From: Altererythrobacter sp.
GTDB lineage: Bacteria; Pseudomonadota; Alphaproteobacteria; Sphingomonadales; Sphingomonadaceae
Length of the DNA stretch: 64,000 bases
Direction of reading: 5' to 3'
Assembly: GCA_031178065.1 (NCBI GenBank)
Contig: JAPSJS010000010.1
Location: 1 to 64,000, forward strand
Shown: in pieces, positions 57,073 to 62,461 of the stretch
How positions within the stretch are numbered: the stretch's first letter is position 1
Layout: every line of letters begins with the position of its first letter
The notes under the pieces: generated by a model
What the model saw: the letters and a program-made list of their open reading frames with translations, nothing else
What the model was told of the DNA's origin: nothing
The model's database searches: none
Program-made: the position numbers and the translations under genes

Positions 57073-57420
57073 CTATTCGTTGCGGGTGGCGATCCAGCTG
57101 CCGGCGACCACGAGGATTGCGATCGAGATCCAGTACCAGGGATGGCCGAGCGTGTACCAGGTGAACACCGCGCCGATGGTCATCGCGCCGATCGCCAGGG
57201 TCTTGGCCCGGCGCGAGATCGCGCGCCGCTCGCGCCAGTCGCGCACCTGCGGCCCCCAGTGCGGGTGGTCGAGGATGCGCTGCTCCCATTCGGGATTGCT
57301 GCGCGCGAAGCAATAGACCGCCAGCAGCAGAAACGGCACTGTCGGCATGATCGGCAGGAAGGCGCCGATCGCGCCGAGCCCGACCGCGAGGATGCCGCCC
57401 GCCAGATAGAGGCGGCGCAT
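57073..57420 (-). CDS. DUF454 (YbaN-like) inner-membrane protein
   Basis: A 115-residue protein. Two helices at the N-terminus (LAGGILAVGLGAIGAFLPIM then VPFLLLAVYCFARSN), the family motif HPHWGPQVRDWRERRAIS, and two more helices (MTIGAVFTWYTLGH, ISIAILVVAGSWIATR). This is the DUF454/YbaN layout; function unknown. It follows sufE with one base between stop and start, so the two are one unit. Whether this pair belongs to the psp operon upstream is unclear, because an inverted repeat intervenes at 57851. Confidence 0.9.
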   Translation of the reverse strand: MRRLYLAGGILAVGLGAIGAFLPIMPTVPFLLLAVYCFARSNPEWEQRILDHPHWGPQVRDWRERRAISRRAKTLAIGAMTIGAVFTWYTLGHPWYWISIAILVVAGSWIATRNE

Positions 57421-57421
57421 G

Positions 57422-57829
57422 TCAGCCGGTCGCGATCCGCGCCGCGTGATCCTTCACCAGCGCGATCATGTTGGGCACGCCTTGGGTGCGGTTGGAACTA
57501 AGCTGGTTCTTCAGGTCGAACGGCGCGAGCGCGGCGGTCACGTCCATCGCAGCGACTTCGTCGGCCGGCTTGTCCTGTACTGCGGCGATCACCAGCGCGA
57601 CGATCCCCTTGGTAATTGCGGCGTTGCTGTCGGCGAGGAAGTGCAGTTCGCCGTCCCGCTCGGTCGGGTAGACCCAGACCGCGGCCGAGCAGCCGCGCAC
57701 CAGCGTGGCGTCGGTCTTGAGCGCCTCGGGCATGGGGTCGAGGTCGCGGCCGAGCTCGATCAACAGGCGATAGCGTTCGTCGCCTTCGAGGAATTCATAC
57801 TCTTCGCGGATATCGTCGAGGGTTCGCAT
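57422..57829 (-). CDS. sufE: SufE-family sulfur acceptor
   Basis: A 135-residue protein. SufE accepts persulfide sulfur from a cysteine desulfurase (SufS) for iron-sulfur cluster assembly. The active Cys is in LVRGCSAAVWVYP near residue 46; DLDPMPEALKTD before and FDLKNQLSSNRTQGVPNM after are family features. Start 57829 (MRTLDDI) is chosen; an open frame runs upstream to 57982 but only because it crosses the inverted repeat, giving a false N-terminus. The rest of the suf genes are outside the window. Confidence 0.93.
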   Translation of the reverse strand: MRTLDDIREEYEFLEGDERYRLLIELGRDLDPMPEALKTDATLVRGCSAAVWVYPTERDGELHFLADSNAAITKGIVALVIAAVQDKPADEVAAMDVTAALAPFDLKNQLSSNRTQGVPNMIALVKDHAARIATG

Positions 57830-57850
57830 AGCCGCGGCGGTTATCAGTAT

Positions 57851-57931
57851 CGTCATCCCAGCGAAAGCTGGGATCGCGTGCAGCAATGCGCGACCTGGCG
57901 GACAGCGATCCCAGCTTTCGCTGGGATGACG
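57851..57931. repeat. Inverted pair of 26-bp hairpin units (REP/BIME-like)
   Basis: A 26-bp sequence at 57851-57876 is repeated exactly in inverted order at 57906-57931, 29 bases apart. Each unit is itself a hairpin (GATCCCAGC, loop TTTC, GCTGGGAT). This is the look of a BIME-type pair of REP elements. It separates the psp block from sufE-DUF454 and could end transcription or protect mRNA 3' ends. No second copy was found in the window. Confidence 0.8.
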
Positions 57932-58000
57932 GGTGTTGGGGAAAGGGGAGCACGCGAGCCCGGCGTCAGTGGGATGACGCATTCTTGCCGGCGTAAGGGC

Positions 58001-58240
58001 TTACAAATCCACGCCGCTGGCAATTGCTTCCAGCTTGCGGATGCGTTCCTTGAGATCGGCGATTTCGATCCGGGCCGCGCCCAGCGGTGCGCCGCCTTCG
58101 ATCTCCCGCAGTGGGTGGCCGACGCGTTCGAGCTCGCGTTCCTTGAGCGCCAGCCATCCCTGCCAGCCGCGCAGCATGACCAGCGCGACGATCCCGATGG
58201 CGGCGAGCGCTGCGGCGGCGATGATGATCTGGTCGCTCAT
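58001..58240 (-). CDS. PspB-like small membrane protein 5
   Basis: A 79-residue protein: one N-terminal membrane helix (IIIAAAALAAIGIVALVML, about residues 5-23) and a C-terminal coiled coil with LKERIRKLEAIASGVDL, a shortened form of the motif shared by this gene row. Start 58240 is preferred (AGGAAGGAG 8 bases ahead) over ATG 58246. It is the last of five PspB-like genes following pspC; the gap to the previous one is 39 bases. E. coli PspB has the same helix plus coiled-coil layout. Function beyond envelope-stress sensing is unknown. Confidence 0.8.
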   Translation of the reverse strand: MSDQIIIAAAALAAIGIVALVMLRGWQGWLALKERELERVGHPLREIEGGAPLGAARIEIADLKERIRKLEAIASGVDL

Positions 58241-58279
58241 ATGCATTGCTCCTTCCTGCGATTCCCTTTGGGCCCCGGC

Positions 58280-58534
58280 CTACCTGTCGCGCAGCCGCTC
58301 GATCTCGTCGGCGATCGCCTTCGCCTCGCGCCCGTCGACAGTGATCTGTTCCAGCACCTTTACCCGTTCACGGAGTTCCTCCAACTCGCGCTGGGTGCCG
58401 GGATCGGGCTGAGGCGCGGCGAGATCGGTCCCCGGCTCGCCATGCCGGTGCCTGCGGCGTGCCTGCCGCGCAGTCACAATCTGCACGAAGCCCCAGATGG
58501 CGACGATCACGACCAAAGCGGTCCAGAAGCTCAT
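58280..58534 (-). CDS. PspB-like small membrane protein 4
   Basis: An 84-residue protein: membrane helix about residues 3-20 (FWTALVVIVAIWGFVQIV), a basic stretch (RQARRRHRH), then a coiled coil with LRERVKVLEQITVDGREA and DEIERLRDR at the end. The motif matches the C-terminus of PspB (RIQALESIL in E. coli). ATGA overlap with the preceding gene at 58531-58534 shows coupling. Unrecognised as a separate family; classed here by layout, motif and position. Confidence 0.8.
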   Translation of the reverse strand: MSFWTALVVIVAIWGFVQIVTARQARRRHRHGEPGTDLAAPQPDPGTQRELEELRERVKVLEQITVDGREAKAIADEIERLRDR

Positions 58535-58818
58535 TGCAGTTTCTCCCCGATGTCGGCCTGGTCGCGAAGATCTTCGATCTCCATCGCGAGATCGGCGCCG
58601 CGGTCGGTCGCGATCCGCTCGAGCACGCGGACGCGCTGCTCCAGCTTCTCCGCCCGGGTCGCATATTGCGCTGCCTGTTCGGCGGTCTTGTTTGCCATGA
58701 GCTCCATGTGCCGCTCTTTATGGCGCAGCCAGCGGTGCAGCATGTCGTTGCCGATGCCGAGCACCACGGCCGTGATCACGACCACGAAAATGAGAATGGC
58801 GATCAGTTGGACGGACAT
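58531..58818 (-). CDS. PspB-like small membrane protein 3
   Basis: A 95-residue protein: membrane helix about residues 4-24 (LIAILIFVVVITAVVLGIG), a basic juxtamembrane part (HRWLRHKERHME) and a coiled coil with TAEQAAQYATRAEKLEQRV, then VLERIATDRGADLAMEIEDL. The segment TAEQAAQY-x-x-R is shared with protein 1 of the row, showing recent duplication. Its start shares one base with the stop of the preceding gene, and its end overlaps the next start by ATGA. Confidence 0.85.
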   Translation of the reverse strand: MSVQLIAILIFVVVITAVVLGIGNDMLHRWLRHKERHMELMANKTAEQAAQYATRAEKLEQRVRVLERIATDRGADLAMEIEDLRDQADIGEKLQ

Positions 58819-59174
58819 TAGTTGACGCCTTCCTTGTCGGCGGGACGGATGTCATGCAGCCGGTTGATCTCATGCGTGAGCTGATAGCCGCTGTCGGTGA
58901 CGATCCGCTCCACATTGGCAAGCCGGTCCTTCATCGACCCCATTTCGGCGCGCAGTTCGGCGTTCTCCTGCGTCAGCAGCCTGATCCGCTCGGCCGCCTG
59001 GGCGTCGGTGCTCGGCTTGAGCGACTGGCCCCACATGCCTTCCAGCGGGTAGCCGTGCTTGATCCGCAGCCGCGTGGTGTGGATCCACCCGAACACGCCC
59101 GCCAGACCCACCGCGGTCGCGCCGCCGATGATCCAGGGCAGGTAGGGGAGGAGTTCGATGCCTTGCACTTGCAT
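58818..59174 (-). CDS. PspB-like small membrane protein 2
   Basis: A 118-residue protein: membrane helix about residues 9-30 (YLPWIIGGATAVGLAGVFGW), a longer middle part (IKHGYPLEGMWGQSLKP) and a coiled coil LTQENAELRAEMGSMKDRLA leading to NVERIVTDSGYQLTHEINRL. It differs from the other members by the extra middle segment. Start ATG 59174 overlaps the preceding stop (TGATG); GTG 59177 is the alternative. AAGGAG lies 8 bases before the ATG. Confidence 0.85.
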   Translation of the reverse strand: MQVQGIELLPYLPWIIGGATAVGLAGVFGWIHTTRLRIKHGYPLEGMWGQSLKPSTDAQAAERIRLLTQENAELRAEMGSMKDRLANVERIVTDSGYQLTHEINRLHDIRPADKEGVN

Positions 59175-59479
59175 CACGCGTTCTCCTTGTTCGGCATGCG
59201 CAGCGGCACGCCGGTGTCGCGTTCCTCGACCTCGCGCTTGTCGCGCAGGGCCTCGATCTGGGTGGCGATGTCGTAGCCGCGGTCGGTGACGATGCGTTCG
59301 AGCACCTGGACCCGCTGTTCGAGTTCCGCGACGCGGCTGGAGTACTGTGCGGCCTGTTCGGCGGTCTGGCTGGCGGTGGCGGCGATGCGCTTCTCCTCCA
59401 GCTTGCTGTGCTTCACGATCCAGACGATGCCGAGCACCATCAGGAAGGGCGCCAGCGGTACGAGAATTCCAAGCTCCAT
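59174..59479 (-). CDS. PspB-like small membrane protein 1
   Basis: A 101-residue protein: membrane helix about residues 4-23 (GILVPLAPFLMVLGIVWIV), charged linker (KHSKLEEKRIAA), and a coiled coil TAEQAAQYSSRVAELEQRV followed by VLERIVTDRGYDIATQIEAL. It is the clearest example of the shared motif. It follows pspC after 28 bases. Closest relative in the row is protein 3. Likely binds PspC/PspA or forms mixed oligomers with PspB (inference). Confidence 0.87.
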   Translation of the reverse strand: MELGILVPLAPFLMVLGIVWIVKHSKLEEKRIAATASQTAEQAAQYSSRVAELEQRVQVLERIVTDRGYDIATQIEALRDKREVEERDTGVPLRMPNKENA

Positions 59480-59507
59480 TTCGTTTCCCCTTCCTTGGCG
59501 GGTGCTG

Positions 59508-59885
59508 TCAGCGCAGGCGCTCGATCTCGGCGGTCAGGCGCGGGTTGCTGGAGACGTAGTAAGTCTCGACTTCGGCCAGGCGGCGATCGATGTCGCGCAT
59601 CCGGGCGCGGATCTCGCGCGCGGTGCGCTTCGGGCTCTGCCGCACGCGCTGCCAGTACTGTTGCTCCTCGCGATCTACGTAGAGGTGCGGGGGTTTCTTG
59701 TTCAGCAGCAGGCCCGCGATGAAATAGAACGGTATGGTGCCGCCGCCGGCTACGAACGTCAGCCCGATGAAGCCGAGCCGGACCCAGAGCGCGTTGACCC
59801 CGGTGTAGTCGGCGATCCCGGCGCAGACGCCCATCAGCTTGGCGTTCTGCTTGTCGCGATAAAGCGTTGTGCGCGGGCTGTTCAC
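59508..59885 (-). CDS. pspC: Phage shock protein C
   Basis: A 125-residue envelope stress protein. The PspC domain (about residues 5-62) has LYRDKQNAKLMGVCAGIADY and TGVNALWVRLGFIGL, with one long membrane segment (about 40-60). The C-terminal half is soluble and ends with a short coiled coil (AEVETYYVSSNPRLTAEIER), which echoes the motif of the PspB-like proteins. PspB and PspC at the inner membrane release PspA from PspF when the membrane is damaged. ATGA overlap with pspB. Confidence 0.93.
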   Translation of the reverse strand: MNSPRTTLYRDKQNAKLMGVCAGIADYTGVNALWVRLGFIGLTFVAGGGTIPFYFIAGLLLNKKPPHLYVDREEQQYWQRVRQSPKRTAREIRARMRDIDRRLAEVETYYVSSNPRLTAEIERLR

Positions 59886-60178
59886 TGGTGGGCTCCCTTC
59901 TTCTCGGCGAGCATGCGGTCGAGCTCGCGCAACTTTTCGTTATCGATTTCGCGGTCGTGCATCAGCCGGGCAGGCTTGAAGTCCGGATTGTCGGAGGCCA
60001 CCAGCCGCTCGACCGTGTCCATCCGCTCGTCGAGCCGCTTGGCGAGGCTGTAGAGCTCCTCGAGCAGGGCCTCGTCGTCGGTAGTGATCGTGGCAGAGGT
60101 CTTCCACTTGGTGACGTAGTGGAGAATGATCCACGGAAGCGCGATGAAGATCGCGACGATTGCCAGTACCTCTTCCAT
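59882..60178 (-). CDS. pspB: Phage shock protein B
   Basis: A 98-residue protein: membrane helix about residues 3-22 (VLAIVAIFIALPWIILHYV), then a coiled coil LYSLAKRLDERMDTVERLVA with SDNPDFKPARL, matching PspB (E. coli: ERIQALESIL then HPNW). It partners PspC in stress sensing. Gaps: 3 bases after pspA, ATGA into pspC. A C-terminal extension (about residues 70-98) is longer than in E. coli PspB (74). Confidence 0.92.
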   Translation of the reverse strand: MEEVLAIVAIFIALPWIILHYVTKWKTSATITTDDEALLEELYSLAKRLDERMDTVERLVASDNPDFKPARLMHDREIDNEKLRELDRMLAEKKGAHQ

Positions 60179-60181
60179 GGA

Positions 60182-60874
60182 TCAGTCCCCCTTGTTTGCG
60201 GCGTCGCCCTTGCCGAGCGCGCGCTTCATCGCTTCCAGTTCCTCGTCGACCCGGTCCGAATCCTCGAGCGAGGCGATCTCGTCGGCGAGCGAGAGCTGGC
60301 CGCTTCCGTCGGACAGCGAGAGCGCGTCGGCGCGCCCTTCGGCGTAATCGACGCGGCGTTCGAGCTGGTCGAAGCGCGCCAGCGCCTCATCGGTGCGCTC
60401 GGTGCTCATCAGCGTGCGCAGCTTGACGCGGTTCTCAGCGCTTTCGAGGCGCGCGGCAATCGCGGTCTGCCGGCTGCGGGCCTCGCGCAGGCGCTGCTGC
60501 AGCTTGGCGATGTCCTGCTCGTAGGCGCGCAGCGCATCGTCGAGCACCGCGATTTCCTGCTTGAGCTGCTCGGCCATGTCGGCCGCCTTCTTCTTCTCGA
60601 CCAGCGCGGCGCGGGCGAGATCCTCGCGATCCTTGCTGAGCGCGAGCTGGGCCTTCTCGCCCCAGTCCGCCTGAAGCCGGTCGAGCTTGACGGTATGGCG
60701 ATGCATCTCCTTCTGATCGGCGATGGTGCGCGCGGCGCTCGCGCGGACCTCGACCAGCGTCTCCTCCATCTCGAGGATGATCATGCGGATCATCTTGGCC
60801 GGGTCGTCGGCCTTGTCGAGCATGTCGTTGAAGTTCGCGGCGATGATGTCGCGGGTACGGCTGAAAATTCCCAT
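60182..60874 (-). CDS. pspA: Phage shock protein A
   Basis: A 230-residue PspA/IM30 (ESCRT-III-like) protein. N-terminal MGIFSRTRDIIAANFNDML is the amphipathic helix 0, followed by ADDPAKMIRMIILEMEETLV and long coiled-coil helices to about residue 215. It binds damaged inner membrane and also inhibits PspF. Start 60874 is preferred because GGAGTG lies 8 bases before and all known PspA begin here. The frame, however, stays open for another 80 codons upstream to a GTG overlapping the previous gene's stop (see next entry), so a longer form is possible. Confidence 0.95.
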   Translation of the reverse strand: MGIFSRTRDIIAANFNDMLDKADDPAKMIRMIILEMEETLVEVRASAARTIADQKEMHRHTVKLDRLQADWGEKAQLALSKDREDLARAALVEKKKAADMAEQLKQEIAVLDDALRAYEQDIAKLQQRLREARSRQTAIAARLESAENRVKLRTLMSTERTDEALARFDQLERRVDYAEGRADALSLSDGSGQLSLADEIASLEDSDRVDEELEAMKRALGKGDAANKGD

Positions 60875-61114
60875 CAGGGGCACTCCGTTGAAATTGAACT
60901 CGCTCGACCAGCCGCTGCCTGCGCGTGCGTGCGACCGGCCCTGCGTCGGCCTCCCCTGCGTCGGGGTGGGGCTGGTGCGCAGGCGCTCGACTTCCTCATC
61001 GAGGCGCGACAGGCGGCTATGGGCCGAAGCGCGGTCGGCGCGCTCCTTGGCGCCGCGGGACTGGGGGGGCTCGCGCTCCGGCCCAAACGGGTCGAGATCG
61101 GTCGGCTTGGTCAC
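60875..61114 (-). other. In-frame open extension between small peptide gene and pspA
   Basis: A GTG at 61114 overlaps the stop of the 50-residue gene (GTGA) and opens a frame of 80 codons that runs into pspA without a stop. It reads VTKPTDLDPFGPEREPPQ at first, then a helical stretch LSRLDEEVERLR (a PspB-motif-like coiled coil), then a low-complexity part with PTQGRPTQGR. It could encode a small coiled-coil protein that has lost its own stop codon, giving a PspA of about 310 residues, or be non-coding spacer. Confidence 0.5.
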
Positions 61115-61263
61115 GCCAGTTCGACCTGTTGGCATCCGACCGTCGCGGCCATGGCCGGCGAGGCGTGCATCTGGCCGCTCAGCGCCACGAACAGGGCCAT
61201 CGCGGTGACGCTGGCGAGGGCGGCCTGTCCCAGCTTGGTCTGAAAGAAGCGGCGGTCGTACAT
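61111..61263 (-). CDS. 50-residue membrane/exported peptide, first gene of psp operon
   Basis: A small gene found by reading the region after the sigma-54 promoter. The product begins MYDRRFFQTKLGQAALASV, has one hydrophobic helix (about residues 12-31, ending in FVALSGQM) and a short tail SPAMAATVGCQQVELA. It looks like a signal-anchored or exported peptide. CGGGAGGACC lies about 7 bases before ATG 61263. Its stop forms GTGA with the next possible start. I recall similar peptides ending in VELA in front of pspA in other sphingomonads, but have no way to confirm it here. Confidence 0.75.
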   Translation of the reverse strand: MYDRRFFQTKLGQAALASVTAMALFVALSGQMHASPAMAATVGCQQVELA

Positions 61264-61303
61264 TGTGTGGGTCCTCCCGGAACTCGGTTACGGGAACAGT
61301 TTC

Positions 61304-61318
61304 GCAAGAGGTGTGCCA
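61304..61318 (-). promoter_or_regulatory. Sigma-54 promoter of the psp operon
   Basis: On the minus strand TTGGCACACCTCTTGC fits the -24/-12 consensus TGGCAC-N5-TTGC exactly, with GG and GC in place (61318 to 61304). Transcription would start near 61292, 29 bases before the 50-residue gene. PspF, the expected activator, is encoded divergently 100 bases away. Confidence 0.92.
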
Positions 61319-61371
61319 AAATCAGAAAGTCGTGAAAATTCAACTGCTTCGTCCCATCCGATCGTGCGAGC

Positions 61372-61390
61372 GTTGGTTTCTGTTGCCAAC
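61372..61390. promoter_or_regulatory. PspF upstream activating site candidate
   Basis: GTTGG-TTTCTGTTG-CCAAC: a 5-bp inverted repeat with a 9-base centre, 54-72 bases upstream of the -24 element. Its distance and symmetry fit an enhancer for a dimeric bEBP. It also overlaps the -35 region of the pspF promoter candidate, which would allow autogenous repression. Confidence 0.45.
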
Positions 61391-61412
61391 AATCGGCGAA
61401 TTTCACTATAGA
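61383..61412 (+). promoter_or_regulatory. Candidate sigma-70-type promoter of pspF
   Basis: TTGCCA (61383-61388), an 18-base spacer, and TATAGA (61407-61412). The expected start point is about 61419-61420, one or two bases before the pspF ATG at 61421, so the message would be almost leaderless. Confidence 0.5.
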
Positions 61413-61420
61413 TTGGGGTC

Positions 61421-62461
61421 ATGGATCGCGACAACCAGTTCATCGGTCAATCGAGCGCGTTTCTCGACGCGGTCGAGCGCGCCAGCCGCGCGGCTCCGAT
61501 GCGCAGGCCGGTGCTGGTGATCGGCGAGCGGGGGACCGGCAAGGAACTGATCGCCGAACGCCTCCACCGCCTCTCGACCCGCTGGGACGAGCCGCTCGTG
61601 ACGATGAACTGCGCCGCGCTGCCCGAAACGCTGATCGAGGCGGAGCTGTTCGGCCACGAGGCCGGAGCATTCACCGGTGCTACCAGAGTGCGCGCGGGAA
61701 GGTTCGAGGAAGCCGACAAAGGGACGCTATTCCTCGACGAACTGGGCACGCTGTCGATGGCGGCGCAGGAGCGGCTGCTGCGCGCGGTCGAATATGGCGA
61801 GGTCACGCGGATTGGTTCGAGTCGCCCGATCCGGGTCGACGTGCGGATCGTCGCCGCGACCAACGAGAACCTGCCCGAGCTGGCCGAGCGCGGCGAGTTC
61901 CGCGCCGACCTGCTCGACCGGCTGAGCTTCGAAGTCATCACCCTGCCGCCGTTGCGCGTGCGGGAGGGCGATATCGAGGTGCTCGCCGAATACTTTGGCC
62001 GCCGCATGGCCGCGGAACTGCACTGGGACGGCTGGCCGGGCTTCGCCGAGCACGTCGCGCGCCAGCTTGAGGAGCATTCCTGGCCGGGCAATGTCCGCGA
62101 GCTGCGCAACGTGGTCGAGCGGGCGGTCTATCGCTGGGACAGCTGGCGCGAGCCGATCGGGCACGTGCAGTTCGACCCGTTCGATTCGCCGTGGAAGCCG
62201 TTCTCGCCGCCCACGCGCAAGGCTCAGGGCGGCGCGGCCGCCCCGGCAGCGCCCGCACGGCCGGGCGGGCTCGATCTCGATGCGGTCGAGGACTTGCGCG
62301 CCGAAGTCGACGCGCACGAGCGCCGCATCGTCGAGCATGCCCTCGGCAAGCACCGCTGGAACCAGCGCCAGACGGCGCGGGCGCTCGGCCTCACCTACGA
62401 TCAGCTACGGCATTGCATCCGAAAGCACGGCCTGGCCGAGCGCGGCGACGGCGAGAGCTGA
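61421..62461 (+). CDS. pspF: Phage shock operon transcriptional activator (sigma-54-dependent)
   Basis: A 346-residue bacterial enhancer-binding protein without receiver domain. AAA+ core about residues 5-235: Walker A GERGTGKE, the sigma-54 contact loop GAFTGA near residues 84-89, Walker B GTLFLDELG, R-finger region FRADLLDRLSFE. A linker follows and then a Fis-type HTH at about residues 305-335 (WNQRQTARALGLTYDQLR). It is inhibited by PspA and drives the psp promoter at 61304. Divergent from the psp operon, as in E. coli. Ends 7 bases from the convergent rnk. Confidence 0.95.
   Translation: MDRDNQFIGQSSAFLDAVERASRAAPMRRPVLVIGERGTGKELIAERLHRLSTRWDEPLVTMNCAALPETLIEAELFGHEAGAFTGATRVRAGRFEEADKGTLFLDELGTLSMAAQERLLRAVEYGEVTRIGSSRPIRVDVRIVAATNENLPELAERGEFRADLLDRLSFEVITLPPLRVREGDIEVLAEYFGRRMAAELHWDGWPGFAEHVARQLEEHSWPGNVRELRNVVERAVYRWDSWREPIGHVQFDPFDSPWKPFSPPTRKAQGGAAAPAAPARPGGLDLDAVEDLRAEVDAHERRIVEHALGKHRWNQRQTARALGLTYDQLRHCIRKHGLAERGDGES

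What the first reader, a model, noticed from the sequence alone, without database searches (positions are those of the whole stretch)
58001..60178. Row of five extra PspB-like proteins after pspA-pspB-pspC
Five consecutive coupled genes each encode one N-terminal membrane helix and a coiled coil ending in a common pattern (L-x-x-R-V-x-V-L-E-R-I-x-T-D-x-G). PspB carries the same pattern (TVERLVASDNP) and PspC ends with an echo of it. E. coli has one PspB. The expansion may give graded or multi-signal membrane stress sensing, or a scaffold for PspA.
Basis: partly seen in the sequence, partly recalled or inferred. Interest (0 to 1): 0.7.

Follow-up and report, generated by a model that had tools for sequence, protein, structure and literature searches.

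The report
Variable array of PspB/PspC-tail membrane proteins
Right behind the three classic membrane-stress genes, this marine bacterium and most sampled relatives carry a row of small membrane proteins that resemble extra copies of the part of PspC (and of PspB) that deals with PspA; the last two genes of the row are mostly kept, while the others are swapped in and out between close relatives.

Summary
The row is real. Behind pspA-pspB-pspC (a Pelagerythrobacter) lie five genes, X1-X5, each one N-terminal helix (N-out, C-in by charge) plus a cytoplasmic helix. Of 113 psp loci examined in the family, 112 carry such genes (477 in all, 0-8 per locus). Four classes: alpha (X1, X3) and beta (X2) vary in number; gamma (X4, 107 loci) and delta (X5, 102 loci, always last) are near-constant. 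'PspB-like' is half right: X1 just passes Pfam's PspB cut-off, but X2's closest relative is the PspC tail, which in Yersinia binds PspA; X5 links only to its siblings. One sigma-54-like site precedes the operon. Between close relatives PspA/B/C stay nearly identical while alpha/beta genes are replaced. Elsewhere an unnamed, unlinked homologue occurs only with PspA (27 of 27 genomes at E<=1e-4; background 57 of 379, uncorrected for descent). Best reading: extra membrane-anchored partners of the PspBC-PspA switch, with exchangeable input and conserved output. 'PspB duplicates' are in print in one clause (PMC11237479); the classes, exchange, and PspA-linked stand-alone family did not appear in my limited paper searches. 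No binding or expression data exist here.

The parts
61304..61318 (-). sigma-54 (-24/-12) promoter-like site TGGCACACCTCTTGC, upstream of the whole operon
   Evidence: only exact match to TGGCACN5TTGC in the 64-kb window, 0.12 expected; sites scoring >=14 of 15 upstream of pspA in 97 of 112 loci
61111..61263 (-). micro-ORF X0 (50 aa, one hydrophobic stretch), first conserved reading frame of the operon
   Evidence: homologues in 46 of 112 upstream regions, a sigma-54-like site (>=13 of 15) ahead of it in 46 of 46; no Pfam family over cut-off, no NCBIfam match
60182..60874 (-). pspA
   Evidence: TIGR02977 275 bits, over cut-off
59882..60178 (-). pspB
   Evidence: PF06667 74 bits, TIGR02976 91.5 bits, both over cut-off
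59508..59885 (-). pspC; its C-terminal tail (about residues 91-125) is the segment shared with the X proteins
   Evidence: TIGR02978 127 bits over cut-off; hhalign beta vs PspC columns 91-126, 96%, 95% with smaller alignments
59174..59479 (-). X1, class alpha (101 aa)
   Evidence: PF06667 26.0 bits vs cut-off 25.6; class by clustering
58818..59174 (-). X2, class beta (118 aa), juxtamembrane GYPLExxWG motif
   Evidence: TIGR02978 PspC tail positions 79-121, E 6e-4; AlphaFold2 helices 6-40 and 58-113, mean pLDDT 82
58531..58818 (-). X3, class alpha, placed apart from X1 within alpha (95 aa)
   Evidence: PF06667 18.1 bits, below cut-off; tree
58280..58534 (-). X4, class gamma (84 aa), near-constant member
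   Evidence: class in 107 of 113 loci
58001..58246 (-). X5, class delta (81 aa), ends ARIEIADLKERIRKLEAIASGVDL, always last
   Evidence: 102 of 113 loci, last in 102 of 102
61421..62461 (+). pspF, divergent activator
   Evidence: TIGR02974 474 bits over cut-off

Best explanation
X1-X5 are single-pass inner-membrane proteins (N-terminus outside, helix inside) whose cytoplasmic helix is a divergent copy of the module that PspC carries as its C-terminal tail and PspB as its cytoplasmic part. They are most likely made together with PspA, PspB and PspC from one PspF/sigma-54 promoter and work as extra partners in the PspBC-PspA switch: they pair through the helix with PspB, PspC and one another and so set when, and on how many membrane sites, PspA is held or released from PspF. 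Gamma and delta are the constant part of this extra layer; alpha and beta are exchangeable anchors with diverse membrane helices and a conserved helix, which suggests different inputs feeding one output. Shown here: homology, topology by charge, class structure and order, common upstream promoter-like site, purifying selection, gene replacement between close relatives, co-occurrence of the stand-alone homologue with PspA. Inferred: co-transcription, protein contacts, PspA binding, signal diversity.
For: Homology among alpha, beta, gamma (hhalign 99%) and to the PspC tail and PspB; reversed controls at most 12.4%, the PspA coiled coil as decoy at most 6.2%. Six of six stand-alone homologues scanned match both TIGR02976 and TIGR02978 (E 9e-6 to 6e-3, all below cut-off), the PspC match reaching the model's last position in six of six. 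Topology: 473 of 475 proteins have more K/R after the membrane helix than before, none the reverse. Operon: 450 of 477 gaps are 60 nt or less; sigma-54-like site of >=14/15 upstream of pspA in 97 of 112 loci, best score inside any row 13. Order: 97 of 113 rows end gamma-delta. Exchange. PspA link: 27 of 27 genomes with a match at E<=1e-4 have PspA over cut-off, against 57 of 379 sampled genomes beyond the 19 family members; also 16 of 16 genomes whose stand-alone loci were read (14 of these are among the 27). Known biology: in the on state the PspC C-terminal cytoplasmic domain binds PspA, which releases PspF (passage in PMC5596341); E. coli PspC leucine-zipper mutants fail to interact with PspA (passages in PMC3068692).
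Against: No interaction, expression or phenotype data. PspB-X pairs are not significant one to one, and the PspB and PspC profiles themselves match each other at only 20%, so the wider grouping leans on the X and stand-alone proteins as links. X5 shows no direct profile link to PspB or PspC. In the tree alpha, gamma and the stand-alone set are not each one clade (3, 3 and 7 changes). The stand-alone homologues show no sigma-54 site as a group: 2 of 16 upstream regions at shuffle p<0.05. The AlphaFold2 model of PspC is poor (pLDDT 62), so the tails could not be compared in structure. Co-occurrence counts are not corrected for relatedness (27 genomes in 7 families); at E<=1e-3 it is 29 of 33.
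Confidence: 0.6

Rival explanations
1. Scaffold: the row mainly supplies many membrane docking sites for PspA. Copy number, not signal identity, matters; variation in alpha/beta is drift among interchangeable anchors.
For: In alpha the conserved part is the helix, while the first half is poorly conserved (mean pair identity per sixth 0.23, 0.25, 0.39, then 0.63, 0.62, 0.30); the number of genes varies from 0 to 8.
Against: Old, distinct types are kept side by side: of 163 genes with a same-class sibling in the row, only 1 is closest to that sibling; X5 lacks the T-D pattern; delta is always last. Drift alone does not need this.
Confidence: 0.2
2. Effectors, not regulators: PspF-induced small membrane proteins (as PspG or PspD are thought of in enterobacteria) that act on the membrane themselves and merely inherited the PspB/PspC helix.
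For: Small, single-pass, co-located, with a common promoter-like site; PspB and PspC themselves protect against secretin toxicity without PspA in Yersinia (passages in PMC3467454).
Against: The best-conserved part is the cytoplasmic helix shared with the PspC tail; the stand-alone homologue tracks PspA presence.
Confidence: 0.15
3. Chance resemblance of membrane-anchored coiled coils; the row has nothing to do with PspB or PspC beyond being next to them.
For: Coiled coils give spurious matches; PspB-X pairwise scores are at chance; X4 and X5 match no family over a cut-off; weak matches to spanins and other coiled coils occur too.
Against: Reversed profiles and the PspA coiled-coil decoy stay at or below 12.4%; PspC tail-X2 z 9.9; the beta match runs through the end EIExLR of PspC; a row member follows pspC in 112 of 113 loci.
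Confidence: 0.05

Closest known systems
C-terminal cytoplasmic tail of PspC (TIGR02978 positions about 72-121)
   Same: Helical segment with R-[LVI]-x-x-[VL]-E and a later L-x-x-E-I-x-x-L-R; same operon; best profile match of beta and gamma among Psp proteins
   Different: No PspC domain (PF04024) match in any X protein; a single N-terminal membrane helix of its own; many copies
PspB (PF06667, TIGR02976)
   Same: One N-terminal membrane helix, cytoplasmic helix with L-x-x-R-x-x-x-[VL]-E-R; X1 over the Pfam cut-off; same operon
   Different: None of the five reaches the NCBIfam equivalog cut-off (51.7 bits); X2, X4, X5 not matched; separate classes next to a bona fide PspB
'PspB duplicates' in psp operons, one clause in PMC11237479 (2024), example AOL22920.1
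   Same: Extra PspB-like genes inside a pspABC operon; the same paper also notes PspC fused to a divergent C-terminal PspB (passages)
   Different: No classes, copy-number range, order, gene exchange, delta type or stand-alone family in the passages read; its tables and web app were not seen, and whether the example is from this clade was not checked
PspD and PspG (enterobacterial small Psp proteins)
   Same: Small proteins of the Psp response
   Different: No PspD or PspG family appears among the Pfam or NCBIfam matches of X1-X5

Membership tests
PspB (PF06667 / TIGR02976) | Pfam gathering score 25.6 bits | tested here: inconclusive
   X1 26.0 met; X3 18.1 not met; X2, X4, X5 no match. Met by 1 of 5.
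PspB (PF06667 / TIGR02976) | NCBIfam equivalog cut-off 51.7 bits | tested here: not met
   X1 34.6, X3 14.3, X2, X4, X5 not listed; the operon's PspB 91.5. So none is filed as PspB in the strict sense.
PspB (PF06667 / TIGR02976) | single N-out membrane helix followed by a cytoplasmic helix | tested here: met
   K/R 0.06 before vs 3.9 after the helix on average, 473 of 475 (charge rule only); AlphaFold2 of X2 two helices
PspB (PF06667 / TIGR02976) | binds PspC and takes part in stress-dependent induction | not testable with these tools
   needs two-hybrid, pull-down and reporter assays
PspC (PF04024 / TIGR02978) | PspC domain | tested here: not met
   no PF04024 match in X1-X5 at E<=1
PspC (PF04024 / TIGR02978) | homologous C-terminal tail | tested here: met
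   hhalign 96% beta, 89% gamma, 78% alpha; 0.3% delta, i.e. not met for X5
PspB/PspC-tail group (this report's wider grouping) | membrane helix + module homologous to PspB helix and PspC tail | tested here: met
   alpha, beta, gamma and stand-alone homologues; delta only through alpha, gamma and the stand-alone set (92, 94, 95%); PspB-PspC directly only 20%
psp operon member | co-transcription with pspABC under PspF/sigma-54 | tested here: inconclusive
   short gaps, one good sigma-54-like site, none as good inside the rows; no RNA data

The most novel reading that the evidence does not exclude
The row is an exchangeable receptor bank plugged into a frozen stress switch: alpha/beta cassettes, drawn from a family-wide pool of old subtypes, give each strain its own set of membrane inputs (for example to pore-formers, phage or antibiotics), while gamma/delta and the PspABC core turn any of them into PspF release; and the unlinked homologue in other Proteobacteria is an overlooked Psp partner that follows PspA across the phylum.
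Probability: 0.3. Interest if true: 0.82.

Novelty: new variant of a known kind. Interest (0 to 1): 0.6.

Why it matters
How PspB and PspC sense membrane damage is an open question. Here nature has put PspC-type tails on separate anchors and varied them many times over while the core stayed constant, which gives a ready-made set of natural swaps for asking what the anchors sense and what the tail binds. The stand-alone homologue that tracks PspA, under no family cut-off in Pfam or NCBIfam in the six examples scanned, would be a new candidate Psp component in other Proteobacteria.

Tried and rejected
Rejected: five plain PspBs (equivalog cut-off met by none of five; PspC tail closer for X2). 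Rejected: recent tandem duplication in this strain (X1 and X3 sit in different parts of alpha; 1 of 163 genes closest to its own sibling). Rejected: row specific to this genus; for delta, 109 of the 114 matching genomes of the order scan are in the family and the other five are weak, E 1e-5 to 2e-4. Phage or plasmid origin not supported as far as tested: no match of X2 in 50,697 phage records or of X1 in 72,556 plasmid records at E<=0.01, none of one stand-alone homologue in the phages; PHROGs gives only weak matches, some to spanins.

Led nowhere: Foldseek of the X2 model against PDB, no match; PDB sequence search with PspB one match at E 0.18 and with PspC none; AlphaFold2 of PspC too poor to compare tails; sigma-54 sites before stand-alone homologues mostly at chance, two of the 16 regions with a start off by a few bases; the Novosphingobium paper gave one table header. 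Two Yersinia papers on PspB/PspC cytoplasmic domains are not held, so their content is cited only through passages of other papers.

Weak points of my counts: the row model was seeded with ORFs that passed a motif filter; the motif-only counts were superseded. 10 of 119 genomes had no PspC over cut-off (8 of them no match) and were not examined for rows. Some loci run into contig edges (L069, L086, L142 among them). 20 of the 29 close locus pairs come from the seven Pelagerythrobacter loci and are not independent. The class and phylum scans scored at most 14 and 12 candidates per genome, so absences there are soft. The 379 background genomes are the 398 sampled minus the 19 family members listed. 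Dropped before a count: proteins under 60 aa in the topology count (2 of 477) and class alignments; one stand-alone row (L290b).
Full report
WHAT IS THERE. On the minus strand, behind a divergent pspF (61421-62461, +), lie pspA (60182-60874), pspB (59882-60178) and pspC (59508-59885), each over its NCBIfam equivalog cut-off. Five short genes follow: X1 59174-59479, X2 58818-59174, X3 58531-58818, X4 58280-58534, X5 58001-58246. Gaps are +28, -1, -1, -4 and +33 nt. An exact sigma-54 -24/-12 core (TGGCACACCTCTTGC) at 61304-61318 is the only one in the window, 0.12 expected. On the minus strand of 57300-61500 no sigma-70-like site lies inside the row, and the terminator-like hits are one inside pspC (59744-59728) and one beyond X5 (57330-57318); five hits on both strands against 2.7 (sd 1.9) in shuffles. 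The genome is a Pelagerythrobacter: same-genus contigs have the lengths of P. rhizovicinus NZ_SDPV01000001 and P. marinus NZ_WTYO01000001. The GTDB family is, by the names, that of Erythrobacter and Novosphingobium (Sphingomonadaceae; GTDB label recalled).

IS THE LIKENESS REAL? With the cytoplasmic parts alone and 400 shuffles each, all ten X-X pairs are at p<=0.028 (seven with no shuffle as high), and PspC tail-X2 scores z 9.9; PspC-X3 p 0.005, PspC-X1 p 0.03, PspB-PspC p 0.013; PspC-X4, PspC-X5 and all five PspB-X pairs are not significant. Profiles reach further: Pfam PspB finds X1 at 26.0 bits (cut-off 25.6) and X3 at 18.1; NCBIfam TIGR02976 finds X1 at 34.6 (cut-off 51.7); the PspC model TIGR02978 finds X2 by positions 79-121 and X1 by 72-120, E about 1e-3. 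Of 16 members each of alpha and beta and 15 of gamma scanned singly, TIGR02976 matches 4, 2 and 3 and TIGR02978 matches 4, 5 and 1 at E<=0.01; of 16 delta members none matches a Psp family in Pfam at E<=0.01.

FAMILY-WIDE SURVEY. PspC over cut-off was found in 109 of 119 genomes of the family. I took 112 psp loci (108 of those genomes plus four same-genus ones) and the window: 113 loci. pspC was found in 113, pspA, pspB and pspF in 112 each (L069, which lacks pspA and pspB, starts at a contig edge). A model seeded with motif-bearing ORFs found 477 row members: 0 (1 locus), 1 (6), 2 (7), 3 (13), 4 (37), 5 (32), 6 (10), 7 (6), 8 (1). Clustering gave alpha 118 genes in 85 loci, beta 140 in 89, gamma 110 in 107, delta 102 in 102, and 7 others. 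Delta is last in 102 of 102 and 97 of 113 rows end gamma-delta; 38 different class strings occur, the empty one included. A tree of 119 rows on 85 columns keeps beta (support 91), delta and PspB (99) each together and puts X1 and X3 in different parts of alpha; alpha, gamma and the stand-alone set need 3, 3 and 7 changes, and many forks are unresolved. By charge 473 of 475 proteins are N-out, C-in. Of 477 gaps, 141 are <=0, 309 are 1-60 nt, 27 longer; 97 of 112 loci have a sigma-54-like site of >=14/15 upstream of pspA, while the best score inside the rows is 10-13. A 50-aa micro-ORF lies between that site and pspA in 46 of 112.

WHAT THE MODULE IS. hhalign on the family alignments: alpha-beta, alpha-gamma, beta-gamma 99%; beta-PspC 96% (36 columns, PspC 91-126 to its end), gamma-PspC 89%, alpha-PspC 78%; beta-PspB 88%, alpha-PspB 77%, gamma-PspB 35%; delta-gamma 94%, delta-alpha 92%, delta-beta 66%, delta-PspB 1.2%, delta-PspC 0.3%; PspB-PspC 20%; reversed controls at most 12.4%. 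Smaller alignments gave 95% (beta-PspC) and 80% (alpha-PspB). PspA, a true coiled coil, as decoy: at most 6.2%. The AlphaFold2 model of X2 is a membrane helix (6-40), a loose link carrying GYPLExxWG, and one long helix (58-113), mean pLDDT 82; Foldseek found no PDB match. The PspC model was too poor to use.

FROZEN CORE, CHANGING ROW. Within the genus PspA, PspB and PspC hardly differ, but the row does. Window against P. rhizovicinus (L173), position by position: DNA identity pspA 96, pspB 95, pspC 93, X1 67, X2 51, X3 54, X4 76, X5 81% (its row reads alpha-beta-beta-gamma-delta; the best class-matched proteins are 50 and 44% for X1 and X3, 69% for X2); against L171 only X3 is replaced (58%) between X2 (87%) and X4 (88%); against L172 all five are 87-98%. 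Clear orthologues (window against L172 and L171) have dN/dS 0.03-0.15. Over 29 locus pairs with PspA >=93% identical, median protein identities are PspA 0.95, PspB 0.90, PspC 0.94, alpha 0.50, beta 0.66, gamma 0.71, delta 0.84, and the best match is under 60% for alpha in 32 of 51, beta 7 of 35, gamma 1 of 29, delta 0 of 29; 20 of the 29 pairs come from one genus. Of 163 genes with a same-class sibling in their row, 1 is closer to that sibling than to genes of other genomes, also when only loci with PspA under 85% identity are allowed. So the paralogues are old and their sets are reshuffled; recombination and differential loss both fit.

OUTSIDE THE FAMILY. Delta: 114 of 196 genomes of the order match; the five outside the family are weak, E 1e-5 to 2e-4. 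Gamma: 12 of 385 genomes of the class, seven outside the family, one of them strong (G327, 5e-18). Beta: 52 of 398 of the phylum. I read 20 regions (4.5-7 kb) from 16 genomes outside the family: each holds a stand-alone TM-plus-module gene (three regions have two in a row); none has an ORF matching PspA, and the only PspB or PspC matches are weak ones of the module genes themselves and one in L293. All 16 genomes have PspA over cut-off elsewhere. Six scanned stand-alone proteins match TIGR02976 and TIGR02978, all far under the cut-offs, the PspC match reaching its last position in six of six; Pfam lists PspB for four of the six, below cut-off, beside other coiled-coil families. As a set (17 rows) they match gamma 99.6%, alpha 99.5%, beta 99.3%, delta 95%, PspB 90%, PspC 68%. 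A plasmid-collection search with one of them finds relatives (33-37% identity) on large replicons of Vibrio, Pseudoalteromonas and Photobacterium, one annotated 'hypothetical protein'. Presence follows PspA: outside the family 27 genomes have a match at E<=1e-4 and all 27 have PspA over cut-off, against 57 of 379 (Fisher 9e-26); at E<=1e-3 it is 29 of 33, the four exceptions being weak matches in frames of 322-930 codons. By the coordinates each of the 27 has a match on another contig than pspA or about 80 kb or more away; neighbourhoods were read for 14 of the 27. The counts are not corrected for descent; the 27 fall in 7 families, in this class and beyond it.

HOW IT PROBABLY WORKS. In Yersinia the PspC C-terminal cytoplasmic domain binds PspA in the on state and thereby releases PspF (passage in PMC5596341); in E. 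coli the PspC leucine zipper, in the same tail, is needed for PspA interaction (passages in PMC3068692; there the tail's side of the membrane was still debated). A separate anchor with such a tail, made in the same message, is most simply an additional partner of that switch. Conserved gamma/delta and replaceable alpha/beta suggest constant output and variable input. All contacts are inferred.

WHAT IS IN PRINT. PMC11237479 (2024; [quoted passage not shown] PMC9239133 (passages) treats PspA and PspC paralogues. Searches for PspB or phage shock with paralogue, alphaproteobacteria, Sphingomonas, Novosphingobium, sphingomonad, Erythrobacter, and for PspB-like/paralogue/duplicate phrases listed no paper on such a row by title and start of abstract; two searches showed only 12 of 89 and 12 of 310 papers, the library holds open-licence papers only, and supplements could not be read.

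Noticed in passing
window 61111-61263 (-): A conserved 50-aa micro-ORF (MYDRRFFQTKLGQAA...) between the sigma-54 site and pspA; homologues in 46 of 112 loci, always after the sigma-54-like site. A candidate first gene of the operon without a named family.
   Followed up: partly
L281-L300 (20 regions, 16 genomes outside the family): Stand-alone membrane protein with the same module, unlinked to psp; in the phylum sample it occurs only with PspA at E<=1e-4.
   Followed up: partly
window 57853-57929: Inverted pair of TCATCCCAGCGAAAGCTGGGA, itself nearly palindromic, between X5 and the next gene; looks like a REP-type element, only these two copies in the window.
   Followed up: no
after delta in L066, L071, L073, L077, L080, L103, L129, L135: A conserved small ORF of 58-63 aa (...AGIGLGSAIAVAISWSLHxSI...YVIYYAxTRPGG...) right behind the row, met in 8 of 113 loci by the gene walk.
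   Followed up: no
L169 (G025) and L147 (G134): A second, short PspC-domain match directly before pspC on the same strand (coordinates).
   Followed up: no
own genome, contig C76:21739-21927: A short PspC-domain match (one stop inside) away from the psp operon; similar second matches are listed for many family genomes.
   Followed up: no
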